The notes below the pieces were generated by a model that saw nothing but the letters and a program-made list of their open reading frames with translations, had not been told where the DNA came from and did not search any database. The translations under genes were made by a program, and so were the position numbers. Below, piece after piece: positions 50,126 to 55,272 of a stretch of DNA of 64,000 nt. Where the stretch lies: NCBI GenBank assembly GCA_000525025.1, contig JCKJ01000001.1, positions 1,798,001-1,862,000 on the forward strand. The letters run 5' to 3'. The DNA is from Methylophilaceae bacterium 11. GTDB lineage: Bacteria; Pseudomonadota; Gammaproteobacteria; Burkholderiales; Methylophilaceae. The number at the start of each line of letters is the position of its first letter. Positions within the stretch are counted from its first letter, which is position 1.

Positions 50126-52138
50126 ATGAAACCACACCTATTGCTGAGTTTGTGTTTACTATTGTTGGGCAGCGTCAACGCGTTTGCGGATGATGCCACT
50201 CAACTTGCCCATTTGCCTGAAGACGACTATTTGGGTGATGTGCCACAAGTGCTGACCATTGCGCGATTACGCCAATCCGCTTCGGATGCCCCCTCTGCCT
50301 CTACCATCATTGACCGCGAAACCATACGCGCAGCCGGCATTATTGATTTACCTGAGATTTTTAGATTGGTGCCTGGCTTTTATGTAGGCACCAATGCTGG
50401 TTTTATTCAAAACACCAACCATGTGGTGAGCTACCACGGGCTGACCGATGCTTATTCAAGAAGCATGCAAGTCATGATTGATGGCCGCTCTATTTATCAA
50501 CCACTATATGGTGGTGTGCAATGGAGCGAGATTCCTATCACCATCAATGATATCGAACGCATTGAAATTACACGCGGCCCCAATGCCGCCAGTTACGGCG
50601 CCAATGCATTTTTAGGCACCATTAATATCATTACGCAATCACCCACCGGCGCTAACGGCAATCGTGTATCCGTTAATCATGGCAATGGCCGCAATGAGGC
50701 GTTCTATCATCATTCTGGAAAAGTCAGCGATCTCAGCTACCAAGTCAGTACCGGCTACCGCGAAGACGATGGCTTGAGCAATCGCTCTGACTTTAAACGG
50801 ACAAACCTAATCAATGGGCGTGCCAATCTCAAAATTTCTGATAAGCATGACATTGATTTTCAACTGGGGTATGCGCAAGGCAAGCGCCAAGAAGGCGATG
50901 ACCAACCTGATGCTCTGCTGTTTATGCCGAGAACGCATGATATCAGCAACCATTTTGAGCTGGTTAAATGGAATATGCACTTGACGCCTAAATACGATTT
51001 CTACGTACAGGCATTTCATACCAGAGACAACAGTGATGACGTAGTACCCACAGCCGTCTTACCGTTTCCAGTATCTCCTAGTGTACAGACCTATCGTAAC
51101 CCATATCACTTCGACCGCTATGATATCGAAACCCAATTATCGGCCAATCTAAGCGACAATTTTCAATATGCAGTGGGCGGAAGCATTCGGCGTGATCGCT
51201 TATATTCGCCATTTTGGATAGGCAGTAATAACACACAAAACTTTGATTTAAGAAGACTATTTGCCCAAGCGCAATACGATGTTCACCCTAAGCTGACACT
51301 CAACGGCGGCTTTATGATTGAAGACAATGATTTTACTAATACCGATTTCTCCCCCAGAGCCAGTATGAACGTGCATGTCACGCCAAATCAAACTGTTCGT
51401 TTTGGGTACTCAGAGGCATTCCGCACGCCAAGTTATTTGGAAGAAAAGTTTAGAGGCAGCGTATTAGTCACCACAGCATTTCCACAAAAACTTTTATACC
51501 AACGCTTTTTTGATGAGGGCAATTTAAAGCCCGAAAAAATACAATCACGCGAGATTGGTTATGTCGCCAAATGGGACAGGCTTTCGGTAGATGCCAGATT
51601 TTTCCACGACACCATCAGCAACTATATTACCGAATTTGATAACAACAGTTTTGTAGCGCCTGCTGGCACTGTATTAGTAGGCGGAGATGTTGGCACGTTT
51701 CGCAATATGGGCTCACTAGATATGCGTGGCTTTGAAACACAACTGAACCTAGCGCTGGGCGAAGATACCAAACTGATGGTGAACTATGCGCATATTAAAA
51801 ACTTACCCAACAACGTCAAATCTAATGAAATAGATGATTTGATTGACGCCACCCCCAGAGACATTTCCAGCTTTTTGCTTTCGCATCACTTCTCAGACAA
51901 TTGGGACGCCAGTTTTGCCGGTTATTACAATTCACCAGTCAGAGCACTGGGAGATGGCAACCCTGTCGATAGCAACCACCGTTTTGATGCCCGCGTGGCC
52001 AAGCGCTTCAAACTATCTAAGTGCGATGGTGAGGTTTCACTCAATATCCAGAACATCACAGATCGCCATGAGAAAGAGTTTGCAGACTATAACGTTCTAC
52101 GCCGGCGCGGCTTCGTCAATGTGAGATTGGATTTCTAG
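50126..52138 (+). CDS. TonB-dependent outer-membrane receptor
   Basis: The 670-residue protein has a signal peptide (LLLSLCLLLLGSVNAFA), an N-terminal plug domain (SASTIIDRETIRAAGIIDLP, then VMIDGRSIYQPLYGG and IERIEITRGPNAASYGANAF) and a C-terminal beta-barrel ending NVRLDF with terminal Phe. The ligand is unknown; the plug resembles BtuB/CirA-type receptors. The ATG at 50126 is chosen because the longer frame places 49 residues before the signal peptide. A TATAAT at 50017-50022 is a possible -10 box. It heads the receptor-binding protein-GGDEF/EAL unit. Confidence 0.92.
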   Translation: MKPHLLLSLCLLLLGSVNAFADDATQLAHLPEDDYLGDVPQVLTIARLRQSASDAPSASTIIDRETIRAAGIIDLPEIFRLVPGFYVGTNAGFIQNTNHVVSYHGLTDAYSRSMQVMIDGRSIYQPLYGGVQWSEIPITINDIERIEITRGPNAASYGANAFLGTINIITQSPTGANGNRVSVNHGNGRNEAFYHHSGKVSDLSYQVSTGYREDDGLSNRSDFKRTNLINGRANLKISDKHDIDFQLGYAQGKRQEGDDQPDALLFMPRTHDISNHFELVKWNMHLTPKYDFYVQAFHTRDNSDDVVPTAVLPFPVSPSVQTYRNPYHFDRYDIETQLSANLSDNFQYAVGGSIRRDRLYSPFWIGSNNTQNFDLRRLFAQAQYDVHPKLTLNGGFMIEDNDFTNTDFSPRASMNVHVTPNQTVRFGYSEAFRTPSYLEEKFRGSVLVTTAFPQKLLYQRFFDEGNLKPEKIQSREIGYVAKWDRLSVDARFFHDTISNYITEFDNNSFVAPAGTVLVGGDVGTFRNMGSLDMRGFETQLNLALGEDTKLMVNYAHIKNLPNNVKSNEIDDLIDATPRDISSFLLSHHFSDNWDASFAGYYNSPVRALGDGNPVDSNHRFDARVAKRFKLSKCDGEVSLNIQNITDRHEKEFADYNVLRRRGFVNVRLDF

Positions 52139-52150
52139 CCCGTGAATGTG

Positions 52151-53095
52151 ATGTCTTATTTCAGTATGCGTGCACGACTACAATGCCTGTTCGGCCTAGT
52201 CGTCTTGTTTTATTTTGGGCTCAACCCCATACACGCTTACGCCTGGAGTAACGTCACTATTCTGACCACCAATGATACGACTGCCGTAGCAGAGTTTGTC
52301 AAACAGCTGAAGATAGAAATTAACGAGCAGAGTGGGATTAAAGTCAATGTCTCTAAAAACGATAGCGGCTTATCGATTAACATCCCTAAAGATACTTTAG
52401 TCGTGGCGGTTGGCACACAAGCGCTTTCTTATGCTGGCAACCTAGATGAAAGTACGCCCGTGATAGGCGTATTGGTGCCTAAATCCAGCTATGAAAGCAT
52501 TTTAAAAGAAAGTGAGCGTAGCCCAGATCGTTTCTCGGCTATTTATTTAGATCAACCTTTTACACGCCAACTCGCGCTGATTCGCGCTATTTTCCCTAAC
52601 TTGTATACTATGGGCGTATTGCTTGGTCCGGTATCTCAGTTTCAAAGTAATGATTTACAAAGTGCCGCTAAAAAATTTAATATGGAAGTGAATATCCGCC
52701 TAGTCAATAAGGCCGATGAGCTTCAAAGTAACTTGGAAAAACTCATGATGAGCAAACAGTTGCTGCTCGCGATCCCAGACCCTTTGATTTATACGCGAGA
52801 AACCGCACAAACCATATTGCTGACCACTTATCGTCACCAAACACCGGTCATTGGCTTTTCACAATCGTATGCTAAATCTGGTGCAGTGGCGGCTGTATTT
52901 AGCAGTCCAAAACAGTTTGCATCCGAAGTAGCCAACACCATCAAACAATTACCTAAAGACCATGTTACATTGCCTCTAGCAAAAGCGGCTAACCAATTCT
53001 CCATTGAAATTAACCGTCAAGTTGCCCGCTCGCTTGATATTCGAATTGCTGATGATGCTGTGATTTATCAGCAAATGTTAAAGGATGAAAAATGA
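52151..53095 (+). CDS. Periplasmic ABC-type substrate-binding protein (ABC_sub_bind family)
   Basis: The 314-residue protein has a signal peptide (QCLFGLVVLFYFGLNPIHAY) and a two-lobed binding fold with TLVVAVGTQALSYAG, TPVIGVLVPKSSYESIL and LIYTRETAQTILLTTYRHQT, PVIGFSQSYAKSGAVAAVF, as in the ABC_sub_bind (PF04392-like) family. No ABC permease or ATPase is nearby. It begins 12 bases after the receptor gene and overlaps the GGDEF-EAL gene by four bases, which suggests a sensing role instead of transport. GTG at 52142 is an alternative start. Confidence 0.85.
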   Translation: MSYFSMRARLQCLFGLVVLFYFGLNPIHAYAWSNVTILTTNDTTAVAEFVKQLKIEINEQSGIKVNVSKNDSGLSINIPKDTLVVAVGTQALSYAGNLDESTPVIGVLVPKSSYESILKESERSPDRFSAIYLDQPFTRQLALIRAIFPNLYTMGVLLGPVSQFQSNDLQSAAKKFNMEVNIRLVNKADELQSNLEKLMMSKQLLLAIPDPLIYTRETAQTILLTTYRHQTPVIGFSQSYAKSGAVAAVFSSPKQFASEVANTIKQLPKDHVTLPLAKAANQFSIEINRQVARSLDIRIADDAVIYQQMLKDEK

Positions 53096-55218
53096 GCTTT
53101 TTTAATAAGCTTGGTATTAAAGCAAGGATGATGCTACTAACCGTAGTGCCAACGTTTGTGATTACACTTTTCTTGACGGCGTATTCAATCTCAAAAAGCA
53201 TCAATACACTCAATGACTCGCTGAGCGACCGAGGCCGCATTATTGCCACACAAATTGCCCCCGCCAGTGAGTACGGCGTACTTTCTGGCAACATCAACTT
53301 TTTACAGACACTGATTCAGCAAACCATCTCGCGTGAAGATGACATCATTTCGATTTTAATTACCAATACAGAAGGCGTTCGATTAGCCGTTAGCGGACAG
53401 ATCCCGTATCAAATCAAGCCCAATGTCAGCAATGACTTATCGATTAAAGAGATAAATCAAGCCGAATACATTGTGTCTAACGCGCCGGTGATTCGTAATG
53501 TGGTGGAAATTGACGACTTCTACGATGGCACCAATAACATGTTGGAAGCGAATAAACGTGCAGAGGTTGTTGGTCAGGTCTATGTGGCATTGAGCAAAGA
53601 CCGCATTAAAGCCACCAAAAAATCCATGATTTGGAAAAGTTTGCTGTTAGGTCTCATTGGGTTTCTGACCAGCAGCATTTTGGCTTACCGTTTGGGGCGC
53701 AGTATTACCAACCCTATTATTTCGATGGCGGAATCTGTGAAGAACTTAGGTGCCGGGCATCTAAATTTACGTGTGGACGAAGATGCCGCGGGCGAGATTA
53801 AAACCTTGCAGCTTGGGCTCAACACCATGGCCAACCATATTCAAATGGCGCATGACAGCTTGCAAGACCGCGTACACGATGCAACACGCATGTTGCGCCA
53901 TCAGGCACAGCATGATGCGCTGACTGGACTGGTCAACCGACAAGAGTTTGAGCGCCGCCTGAATGTGGCTTTGAACGATGTCAAAATCAGCAATGCGCAG
54001 CATATTTTCTGCTATATGGATTTGGACCAATTCAAGGTAGTGAATGACACCTGTGGACACCGTGCCGGTGATGAATTGTTGCGACAAATTAGCCTGATAT
54101 TAAGCCAGCGCGTGCGTGAAGAGGATACCTTTGCCCGCCTAGGTGGTGATGAATTTGGCCTATTACTCACCAATTGTGATGTGCAAAATGCCCTGCTGAT
54201 TGCAGAAGAAATGCGCTCCATGGTGGAAGATTTCCGCTTTGTGCATGATAACCGCATGTTTAAAATTGGCGTGAGCATCGGCATGGTCGAAATCACATCC
54301 GAGATGCAAGATTTGGGTGACATTACCAGCTATGCCGATGCCGCCTGCTATGCAGCCAAAGACAATGGCCGTAATCAGATTCACCTGTTTAGACACCATG
54401 ATGATGATTTGGCGAGACGCCATGTGGAAATGGAATGGGTATCGCGCATTAACTCCGCGATGGATGAGAACCGCTTCTGCCTCTATTGCCAGCCTATCTT
54501 GCCGTTGCAGGATGACAATAACAATATCTTTTATGAGATCTTAATTCGTAAGATTGATGTCGACGGCACCATTATTTTGCCGATGGCGTTTATCCCATCG
54601 GCCGAGCGTTATCACTTGATGTCTAAAATCGACCGTTGGGTCATCAACAAGACGTTCTCTATTTACCATCAACTTATTAATACCAATGAGCAACATGACT
54701 TCTTACTGACCATCAACTTATCCGGCATGTCACTCAGCGATAAGGGTTTGCTTGGGTTTATCAAAGACCAGTTTGAGCTATACCAAGTACCGCATACTAA
54801 AATTTGTTTCGAGATCACAGAGACCTCAGCCATTATTAACTTAACCAACACCATTACATTGATGCAAGAATTGAAAGCCATCGGTTGTAAATTCTTATTA
54901 GATGACTTTGGTAGCGGCATGTCATCATTTGCTTATCTTAAAAATCTACCGGTAGACTTCTTAAAAATGGACGGTGGCTTTGTCAAAGACATTACCCGTA
55001 ATGACATTGATTTGGCCATGGCCAAATCTATTCAAAGCATTGCTGAGGCGATGAAAATCAAAACCATTGCCGAGTTTGTGGAGGATGCAGAGACCATGAA
55101 GTTACTGAAGAAAATGGGCGTCGATTATGGTCAAGGGTTTTACTTAAGTAGCCCTATGCCAATTGAAGCAGCACTTGGCAACTTTAGGCAACTTAGCTTA
55201 TTGCAACAGTCTCAATAG
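53092..55218 (+). CDS. Membrane GGDEF-EAL c-di-GMP enzyme with periplasmic sCache/DUF2222-like sensor
   Basis: The 708-residue protein has a membrane helix, a periplasmic domain (residues about 35-180, with RGRIIATQIAPASEYGVLSG as in BarA), a second helix and HAMP linker (RSITNPIISMAESVKNLG). The GGDEF domain is intact and keeps an inhibitory site (REEDTFARLGGDEF). The EAL domain has EIL in place of EAL (FYEILIRK), but keeps NLS, EITETSAI, LLDDFGSGMSSF, FLKMDGGF and TIAEFVED, so it is probably catalytic. It overlaps the binding-protein gene by four bases. Confidence 0.92.
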   Translation: MSFFNKLGIKARMMLLTVVPTFVITLFLTAYSISKSINTLNDSLSDRGRIIATQIAPASEYGVLSGNINFLQTLIQQTISREDDIISILITNTEGVRLAVSGQIPYQIKPNVSNDLSIKEINQAEYIVSNAPVIRNVVEIDDFYDGTNNMLEANKRAEVVGQVYVALSKDRIKATKKSMIWKSLLLGLIGFLTSSILAYRLGRSITNPIISMAESVKNLGAGHLNLRVDEDAAGEIKTLQLGLNTMANHIQMAHDSLQDRVHDATRMLRHQAQHDALTGLVNRQEFERRLNVALNDVKISNAQHIFCYMDLDQFKVVNDTCGHRAGDELLRQISLILSQRVREEDTFARLGGDEFGLLLTNCDVQNALLIAEEMRSMVEDFRFVHDNRMFKIGVSIGMVEITSEMQDLGDITSYADAACYAAKDNGRNQIHLFRHHDDDLARRHVEMEWVSRINSAMDENRFCLYCQPILPLQDDNNNIFYEILIRKIDVDGTIILPMAFIPSAERYHLMSKIDRWVINKTFSIYHQLINTNEQHDFLLTINLSGMSLSDKGLLGFIKDQFELYQVPHTKICFEITETSAIINLTNTITLMQELKAIGCKFLLDDFGSGMSSFAYLKNLPVDFLKMDGGFVKDITRNDIDLAMAKSIQSIAEAMKIKTIAEFVEDAETMKLLKKMGVDYGQGFYLSSPMPIEAALGNFRQLSLLQQSQ

Positions 55219-55241: not shown

Positions 55242-55272
55242 AAAAAAGCCGTACTTTGCAGTACGGCTTTTT
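55242..55272. terminator. Bidirectional terminator after the GGDEF-EAL unit
   Basis: AAGCCGTACT (55246-55255) and AGTACGGCTT (55260-55269) form a perfect 10-bp stem with loop TTGC, flanked by A6 and a T-run. It serves the plus-strand signalling unit and the convergent glycine-zipper gene. Confidence 0.94.

What the first reader, a model, noticed from the sequence alone, without database searches (positions are those of the whole stretch)
50126..55218. Three-gene trans-envelope module: TonB receptor, periplasmic binding protein, GGDEF-EAL enzyme
Seen: receptor, signal-peptide binding protein (12 bases later) and membrane GGDEF-EAL protein (4-base overlap) form one compact plus-strand unit ended by a strong terminator, with no ABC permease or ATPase. 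Known: in Vibrio NspS-MbaA, a periplasmic binding protein controls a GGDEF-EAL enzyme. Inference: the receptor brings a ligand into the periplasm, the binding protein senses it and sets c-di-GMP output through the sCache/DUF2222-like domain. Including the outer-membrane receptor in the same unit as sensor and enzyme would make a complete surface-to-second-messenger relay.
Basis: partly seen in the sequence, partly recalled or inferred. Interest (0 to 1): 0.72.

Follow-up and report, generated by a model that had tools for sequence, protein, structure and literature searches.

The report
Three-gene relay from surface to c-di-GMP
Three neighbouring genes encode an outer-membrane receptor, a protein of the space between the membranes and an inner-membrane signalling enzyme, and the way they evolve suggests that they work as one relay carrying an outside chemical signal to a messenger inside the cell.

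Summary
At 50126-55218 a TonB-dependent receptor (TBDR), an orphan PF04392 binding protein (SBP) and an sCache_4-HAMP-GGDEF-EAL receptor form one plus-strand unit with a terminator. Relatives keep the order: of 64 named loci, 49 have all three genes and 58 have SBP plus receptor.

The strongest evidence is domain swapping. (1) Between two Sulfuricella loci, TBDR, SBP and sensor stay 67-76% identical while the output changes from histidine kinase to GGDEF after HAMP. (2) In the window's genus, 13 of 14 tested genomes without the module hold a standalone receptor beside the same neighbour; in the five read in full the catalytic domains are orthologous but the periplasmic domain is diverged or replaced. 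So TBDR, SBP and sensor behave as one input cassette.

The genome also carries a parallel TBDR-YfiR-CHASE8-GGDEF-EAL module.

Most likely the SBP switches the receptor through its sensor domain, as NspS does MbaA. Ligand import by the TBDR is plausible but unproven: three genomes keep SBP and receptor apparently without it. Ligand and sign are unknown. New variant of a known kind.

The parts
50126..52138 (+). TonB-dependent outer-membrane receptor (plug + beta-barrel, no STN signalling domain found)
   Evidence: Pfam PF07715 and PF00593; best NCBIfam match NF053590 TOL_0244 at 197.3 bits, below its cut-off of 645; upstream of the SBP in 26 of 29 family loci
52151..53095 (+). periplasmic solute-binding protein, PF04392 ABC_sub_bind; signal-peptide-like start; orphan (no permease or ATPase beside it)
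   Evidence: Pfam; model pLDDT 93.3, nearest folds 6hnj Z 25.0, 3lkv Z 23.2, 3lft Z 22.2; only PF04392 match in the genome
53092..55218 (+). inner-membrane receptor sCache_4-HAMP-GGDEF-EAL
   Evidence: Pfam; 15 catalytic and I-site positions checked, all present
53203..53610 (+). periplasmic sCache_4 sensor domain (residues 38-173), proposed docking site of the SBP
   Evidence: PF09984; model with Cache/PAS-type matches such as WalK, CitA, CdgS9
53692..53844 (+). HAMP domain (residues 201-251); in relatives the output changes after it
   Evidence: PF00672; identity profile along receptors
53905..54378 (+). GGDEF domain (residues 272-429), GGDEF motif and RxxD inhibitory site present
   Evidence: PF00990; sites
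54445..55155 (+). EAL domain (residues 452-688), the eight catalytic positions checked are present (motif reads EIL)
   Evidence: PF00563; sites
55243..55272 (.). intrinsic-terminator-like hairpin after the unit, symmetrical (can serve both converging genes)
   Evidence: -17.7 kcal/mol, z -5.7

Best explanation
This is a three-component trans-envelope input cassette fused to a c-di-GMP output. The TBDR takes up, or at least contacts, a scarce extracellular compound at the outer membrane. The orphan PF04392 protein is the periplasmic go-between: it binds the compound (or its periplasmic product) between its two lobes and docks on the sCache_4 domain of the inner-membrane receptor. HAMP passes the change to the GGDEF-EAL part and shifts it between making and breaking c-di-GMP, most likely towards synthesis when the loaded SBP is docked. 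Shown by sequence and comparison: the unit, the domains, the intact catalytic residues, and the joint inheritance of TBDR, SBP and sensor through changes of output. Inferred: SBP-sensor contact (about 0.7), ligand delivery by the TBDR (about 0.5), sign of the effect (about 0.5). Ligand unknown.
For: Gene order: 49 of 64 named loci hold TBDR-SBP-receptor; 58 of 64 hold SBP plus receptor. Of 29 loci read from the phylum-wide search (window's left out), 26 have the receptor next to the SBP; the two lowest-scoring ones (L122, L124) have neither receptor nor TBDR, and the gene after the SBP in L122 is a PF02653 ABC permease (L124 the same by eye). Co-occurrence in 150 family genomes: SBP in 29, close sensor domain (E up to 1e-20) in 31, 29 shared. 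Output swap: L056 (kinase) and L064 (GGDEF) share 67% of the TBDR, 76% of the SBP and 72% of the sensor; along the receptor, identity per 50 residues is 54-82% up to residue 250, 36% in the block with the end of HAMP, then 16-24%. The SBP tree (quick method, 71 rows) needs 8 changes of output, and a 99-supported group of 8 holds kinase, GGDEF and GGDEF-EAL. Input change: standalone receptors in module-less relatives have GGDEF 69-70% and EAL 60-62% identity to the window but 17-19% in the periplasmic part, no sCache_4 match, no SBP, no TBDR. Adaptor and sensor type: 45 of 45 SBP-module sensors from named loci and the window match sCache_4, 29 of 29 YfiR-module receptors match CHASE8, neither set the other; the TBDRs of the two kinds split cleanly (55 and 27 rows, one change, support 99). 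Enzyme: 45 of 45 receptors with a GGDEF domain keep GG[D/E]EF, 44 of 45 the I-site. The genome has 5 TonB_C matches and one PilZ match.
Against: No binding, interaction, expression or c-di-GMP data. Three genomes (G077, G126, G131) keep SBP and receptor with no module-type TBDR found (none, 64 and 73 bits against 1023 and 1104 in two controls; draft assemblies 91-99% complete). Among named loci L072, L079, L085 and L092 also show no TBDR upstream; their genomes were not searched for one. Three loci have TBDR+SBP without receptor (L063, L074, L081) and three SBP with neither (L077, L083, L094). Of five remote receptors scanned against Pfam, L096 and L098 match sCache_4, but L111, L115 and L117 do not, and L087 matches only as a cut-out sensor. 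The standalone receptors still score 74-82 bits with the module-sensor profile (about 290-300 in Methylophilus modules), so their sensor may be diverged rather than foreign. One receptor without SBP (L127) keeps a weak sCache_4, on a long branch. Conservation at the strand ends that line the predicted cleft is only weakly raised (p 0.045). Receptors were gathered by similarity to one example, so 45/45 and 29/29 are partly circular. Joint inheritance of neighbours does not prove contact.
Confidence: 0.6

Rival explanations
1. YfiBNR-like control by sequestration: the SBP is a standing brake (or activator) on the sensor domain, and the TBDR acts as the outer-membrane partner that captures or releases it when the receptor is occupied, without delivering a small ligand to the SBP.
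For: The same genome has a TBDR-YfiR-CHASE8-GGDEF-EAL module with the same gene order. YfiR bridges the inner-membrane cyclase YfiN and the outer-membrane YfiB, which sequesters it (PMC4655355, passages seen). TBDR clades follow the adaptor type.
Against: Three genomes keep SBP and receptor with no module-type TBDR found. The SBP is predicted to keep a two-lobed binding-protein fold, which a mere brake would not need.
Confidence: 0.2
2. Direct sensing: the sCache_4 domain binds the imported compound itself; the SBP only concentrates or buffers it in the periplasm and never touches the receptor.
For: sCache domains often bind small ligands directly (established knowledge, recalled); the fold search places this one among Cache/PAS sensors such as CitA.
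Against: The SBP is kept with this sensor through changes of output, and the recognisable sCache_4 is gone in the five standalone receptors that have no SBP.
Confidence: 0.15
3. Ordinary uptake protein: the SBP serves an ABC importer encoded elsewhere and the three genes are only co-regulated.
For: A solved PF04392-type relative, 3lft, holds Trp; a distant relative sits beside an ABC permease (L122).
Against: The only PF02653-type permeases in this complete genome lie in an operon with urease genes and its own binding protein; the one PF04392 match is this protein; NF041285 TrpX score 53.7 against a cut-off of 390.
Confidence: 0.05

Closest known systems
NspS-MbaA of Vibrio cholerae
   Same: A periplasmic binding protein controls an inner-membrane GGDEF-EAL-type enzyme; ligand occupancy of NspS sets MbaA between cyclase and phosphodiesterase (PMC8967002, passages seen).
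   Different: That paper's main text does not contain the word TonB (0 occurrences); the SBP here is PF04392 and the sensor sCache_4. NspS's own family (polyamine SBP) is recalled, not tested.
YfiBNR of Pseudomonas aeruginosa
   Same: Outer-membrane, periplasmic and inner-membrane proteins in one tripartite c-di-GMP system (PMC4655355, passages).
   Different: Middle protein is YfiR/DUF4154 not PF04392; YfiN has a periplasmic PAS domain (its Pfam name CHASE8 is recalled) not sCache_4; the outer-membrane partner is a lipoprotein not a TBDR.
TBDR-YfiR-like-receptor modules (NCBIfam NF053590 TOL_0244, NF053591 TOL_0243, NF053592 HK near YfiR-like; also L132 in this genome)
   Same: In this family's genomes the same gene order and logic: TBDR, small periplasmic protein, membrane receptor with varied outputs. 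That the three NCBIfam models describe one gene cluster is inferred from their names and numbers.
   Different: Adaptor YfiR/DUF4154 instead of SBP, sensor CHASE8 instead of sCache_4, separate TBDR clade.
TrpX-type / CD0873 ABC substrate-binding proteins
   Same: Fold and Pfam-type sequence family.
   Different: 14-18% identity, no transporter genes beside it, well below the TrpX cut-off.

Membership tests
PF04392 (ABC_sub_bind) | score over Pfam's gathering cut-off | tested here: met
   50.2 bits against 25.9
TrpX-type ABC importer SBP | permease and ATPase genes beside the SBP | tested here: not met
   none in the unit; genome's two PF02653 permeases are in an operon with urease genes
TrpX-type ABC importer SBP | NF041285 equivalog cut-off (390 bits) | tested here: not met
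   53.7 bits
NspS-MbaA | orphan periplasmic SBP gene next to a membrane GGDEF-EAL gene | tested here: met
NspS-MbaA | SBP of the polyamine-binding family | tested here: not met
   only PF04392 matched; that NspS belongs to the polyamine family is recalled
NspS-MbaA | SBP binds the receptor's periplasmic domain and sets enzyme direction | not testable with these tools
   needs biochemistry
YfiBNR | YfiR/DUF4154 periplasmic protein | tested here: not met
   middle gene matches PF04392 only
YfiBNR | CHASE8 sensor in the membrane enzyme (family name recalled) | tested here: not met
   sCache_4 instead
TOL_0244/TOL_0243 TBDR-YfiR modules | TBDR over NF053590 cut-off (645) | tested here: not met
   197.3 bits, the best NCBIfam match
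TOL_0244/TOL_0243 TBDR-YfiR modules | gene order TBDR, periplasmic protein, receptor | tested here: met
   compared with L132 and 28 other YfiR loci
FecA-FecR-type cell-surface signalling | STN signalling domain on the TBDR | tested here: not met
   only Plug and barrel at E up to 0.001
Diguanylate cyclase / phosphodiesterase | GGDEF, I-site and EAL-domain catalytic residues | tested here: met
   15 of 15 positions checked are present in the window protein; activity itself not tested

The most novel reading that the evidence does not exclude
Bacteria own a general plug-and-play surface input: a TonB-dependent receptor plus a dedicated periplasmic adaptor (a PF04392 SBP or a YfiR-like protein) matched to a Cache-type sensor domain (sCache_4 or CHASE8), which evolution attaches to any output (GGDEF-EAL, GGDEF, hybrid histidine kinase, chemotaxis-type). 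It would be a second route from TonB-dependent receptors to the cytoplasm besides the STN/anti-sigma route.
Probability: 0.35. Interest if true: 0.8.

Novelty: new variant of a known kind. Interest (0 to 1): 0.6.

Why it matters
For most c-di-GMP receptors the outside signal and its path through the envelope are unknown. Here the path is suggested by gene order, and nature has already run domain-swap experiments. That makes a direct test possible: which compound, bound by which periplasmic protein, switches which sensor domain. A 2022 review of c-di-GMP sensing says that of 27 families of the periplasmic-binding-protein clan only SBP_bac_3 had been studied in c-di-GMP networks, and does not use the word TonB in its main text; as it does not name NspS or YfiR either, that silence is weak evidence (PMC8846402, passages seen).

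Tried and rejected
Sigma-70 promoter and terminator scan: hits no more frequent than in shuffles, so no promoter is claimed. Rfam search of the window at gathering scores: 0 matches. The surroundings of 12 loci were read by eye for a hint of the ligand; they are mixed, mostly housekeeping-like genes and give none. Distance-matrix correlation of SBP, sensor and TBDR (Pearson 0.82-0.90 on 52 loci) was computed but has no species-tree control, so it is not used as evidence of contact. Conservation at the C-terminal ends of strands in the SBP model: only weakly raised, p 0.045. The VIA-align list of the SBP model showed no YfiR structure among the 50 entries printed; absence from that list excludes nothing. 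PA2072 (PMC13380032, passages) and the Pseudoalteromonas variants paper (PMC8919034, passages) were looked at and are not this system.

Literature searches for the arrangement and its parts. None of the listed titles and abstract starts described a TBDR-SBP-receptor unit. Searches listed only 15 of 28 and 20 of 64 papers, and most subscription journals are not held, so this is weak evidence of absence. PMC9602780 (passages) lists PF04392 among SBP profiles; no link to GGDEF was found in its text.

Rows dropped before counts: the output tree used 71 of the 85 rows with a sensor found (window included); nine had an unread or truncated output, five a short SBP match. L111 and L117 were labelled kinase there. 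L079 is labelled GGDEF but its contig ends inside the gene, so an EAL part cannot be excluded. In one search, L073 (0 bases upstream) and L082 (399 bases upstream) cannot be tested for a TBDR. The sCache_4 scan took 44 of the 58 named receptor loci plus the window. The named loci and the unnamed family loci overlap in part: L036/G131, L044/G077 and L061/G126 appear to be the same genomes (same SBP gene starts), so the two counts must not be added.

For these reasons SBP-sensor contact went from 0.75 to 0.7 and direct sensing from 0.13 to 0.15.
Full report
WHAT IS THERE. The window lies in a complete 2.79-Mb genome. The four SBP loci closest to it in named genomes are titled Methylophilus sp., Methylophilaceae, Methylophilales and Betaproteobacteria bacterium, so it is probably a Methylophilus (inference). 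At 50126-55218 three genes lie head to tail: a TonB-dependent receptor (Plug, barrel), a PF04392 solute-binding protein starting 12 bases later at ATG 52151, and an sCache_4-HAMP-GGDEF-EAL protein overlapping it by 4 bases. A 13-bp hairpin at 55243-55272 ends the unit. The receptor keeps the GGDEF motif, the RxxD site and the eight EAL-domain residues checked.

NO TRANSPORTER PARTNER FOUND. This is the only PF04392 match of the genome. The only two BPD_transp_2 permeases stand side by side in an operon with its own binding protein, two ATPases and urease genes, read by eye. Other permease families were not searched. The genome has five TonB_C matches and one PilZ match.

CONSERVATION OF THE UNIT. 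Among 150 genomes of the family, 29 carry the SBP. In 29 of 29 a homologous receptor is the next gene, and in 26 of 29 part of a homologous TBDR lies upstream. A close sensor domain (E up to 1e-20) occurs in 31 of the 150, 29 of them the same genomes. The two extras (L127, L128) are loci where SBP and TBDR are missing; one receptor there is reduced to 217 residues without GGDEF. In a scan of named genomes, 64 loci were found, mostly with betaproteobacterial titles, three titled Gammaproteobacteria. Of these, 49 have all three genes, nine have SBP and receptor, three TBDR and SBP, and three SBP alone; outputs are 40 GGDEF-EAL, 13 histidine kinase, four GGDEF, one cut off, six none. Phylum-wide, 36 of 398 genomes match. 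Of the 29 loci read (30 returned, window's left out), 26 have the receptor, one only a TBDR and two neither. In those two (L122, L124) a permease-like gene follows the SBP; L122's is PF02653 by Pfam, L124's was judged by eye.

FIRST SWAP: THE OUTPUT. The third gene is not always a c-di-GMP enzyme. Pfam shows sCache_4-HAMP followed by HisKA-HATPase-REC-Hpt in L052, L056 and L066, by GGDEF alone in L064, and by GGDEF-EAL in L085. On a quick tree of 71 SBPs the output needs 8 changes; well-supported branches alone force at least three for GGDEF-EAL and two for kinase. One 99-supported group of eight holds all three outputs. Within it, L056 (Sulfuricella T08, kinase) and L064 (Sulfuricella nzgw577, GGDEF) share 67% of the TBDR, 76% of the SBP and 72% of the sensor. 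Along the receptor, identity is 54-82% per 50 residues up to residue 250, 36% in the block with the end of HAMP, then 16-24%. TBDR, SBP and sensor travel together; the output does not.

SECOND CHANGE: THE INPUT. In 14 genomes of the window's genus without the module I looked beside the hypothetical-recJ gene pair that flanks the TBDR in the window. In 13 a membrane receptor gene lies there (its first half seen, alike by eye in all 13); one genome gave no match; two module carriers used as controls have the TBDR there. Five of the 13 were read in full; the far flank also matches the window's in one of the five (L181), so the locus is shared on one side only in the others. Their GGDEF domains (69-70% identical to the window) are closer than those of any other non-Methylophilus receptor compared (at most 67%, L093). 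Their EAL domains (60-62%) are closer than those of three Methylotenera modules (55-57%) and similar to L035, L055 and L093 (61-64%). On a GGDEF-EAL tree they group with the Methylophilus module receptors (10 rows, support 99). Yet their periplasmic part is 17-19% identical, matches no sCache_4, and there is no SBP or TBDR. The module-sensor profile still gives them 74-82 bits, against about 290-300 for Methylophilus modules, so the sensor may have diverged rather than been exchanged. Since the neighbouring branches of that tree carry modules, loss of TBDR and SBP together with change of the sensor is the simplest reading; the root is not inferred by the tree, so the direction is an inference. 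L127 is a contrary case: no SBP, yet a weak sCache_4 (33 bits), on a long branch.

A PARALLEL MODULE. The same genome has, at G000:C1:2580376-2584959, a TBDR, a YfiR-like DUF4154 protein and a CHASE8-HAMP-GGDEF-EAL receptor in the same order. NCBIfam already has models for a TBDR (TOL_0244), a YfiR-like protein (TOL_0243) and a kinase associated with YfiR-like proteins. PF13689 occurs in 49 of 150 family genomes, 47 over the cut-off. Of 29 YfiR loci recognised (L132 and 28 of the 30 returned), 27 have a TBDR upstream and 28 a receptor downstream. All 45 SBP-module sensors scanned (44 named loci and the window) match sCache_4 at E up to 0.001 and all 29 YfiR-module receptors scanned match CHASE8. 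The TBDRs of the two kinds separate with a single change (55 against 27 rows, last 380 residues, support 99). These sets were gathered by similarity to one example of each kind, so the counts lean towards uniformity. Of five remote SBP-associated receptors, L096 and L098 match sCache_4, but L111, L115 and L117 do not; L087 matches only as a cut-out sensor.

MECHANISM. The best reading is that the SBP is a dedicated messenger protein for the sensor domain. It models as a two-lobed binding protein (pLDDT 93.3), nearest to CD0873 (6hnj), 3lkv and the Trp-bound 3lft; the sensor models as a Cache/PAS-type domain. Aromatic amino acids are only a lead for the ligand, at 14-18% identity. NspS-MbaA shows how such a pair can work: ligand-loaded NspS drives MbaA towards cyclase activity (PMC8967002, passages). 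GG[D/E]EF is kept in 45 of 45 receptors with a GGDEF domain. The EAL part is missing in three (L064, L065, L087), cut off in one (L079) and altered at one or more catalytic positions in five (L067, L069, L071, L078, L085). Synthesis is therefore the steadier output, which is why I guess that the loaded SBP favours it.

THE TBDR. No STN domain was found, so it is not the FecA type. Import of the SBP's ligand is the natural guess, but three genomes (G077, G126, G131) keep SBP and receptor with no module-type TBDR found: none, 64 and 73 bits, against 1104 and 1023 bits in two controls. These are draft assemblies (91-99% complete), though the gene directly upstream of the SBP is seen and is not a TBDR. 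Four more named loci lack a TBDR upstream (L072, L079, L085, L092) and were not followed up. Either the ligand can enter otherwise, or the TBDR has another role, such as holding the SBP at the outer membrane as YfiB holds YfiR (PMC4655355, passages).

VERDICT. It is a new variant of a known kind (SBP- or YfiR-controlled receptors), with an unusually clear natural test of modularity.

Noticed in passing
G000:C1:2580376-2584959 (L132 5377-9960, minus strand): Second three-gene module in the same genome: TBDR, YfiR/DUF4154 protein, CHASE8-HAMP-GGDEF-EAL receptor.
   Followed up: yes
L178 2954-5098, L179 4926-7100, L180 4815-6926, L181 4758-6854, L182 2838-4997: Standalone GGDEF-EAL receptors beside the same recJ neighbour in genomes without the module; orthologous catalytic domains, periplasmic part without a Pfam sensor match over cut-off.
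   Followed up: yes
L036, L044, L061, L127, L128: In these Methylotenera-like loci the module (or its remnant) lies beside genes that look like ruvC-ruvA and ruvB-tolQ (names by eye).
   Followed up: partly
L128 5304-5954: A receptor reduced to 217 residues: start of the sensor followed by the end of EAL, GGDEF gone, in a genome without SBP and without a close TBDR.
   Followed up: partly
L056 2629-6933, L068 2067-6677: Two related TBDR genes in tandem upstream of the SBP, perhaps two ligands feeding one SBP.
   Followed up: no
L074, L077 (Rhodocyclus): SBP (with TBDR in L074) but no receptor next to it; the following gene is a purL-type gene (Pfam in L074).
   Followed up: no
L083 6857-7834: SBP without TBDR or receptor beside it, among genes that look like flhA and flhF (names by eye).
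   Followed up: no
A5 members: One YfiR-module receptor carries a chemotaxis MCPsignal output, so these input cassettes may also feed chemotaxis.
   Followed up: no
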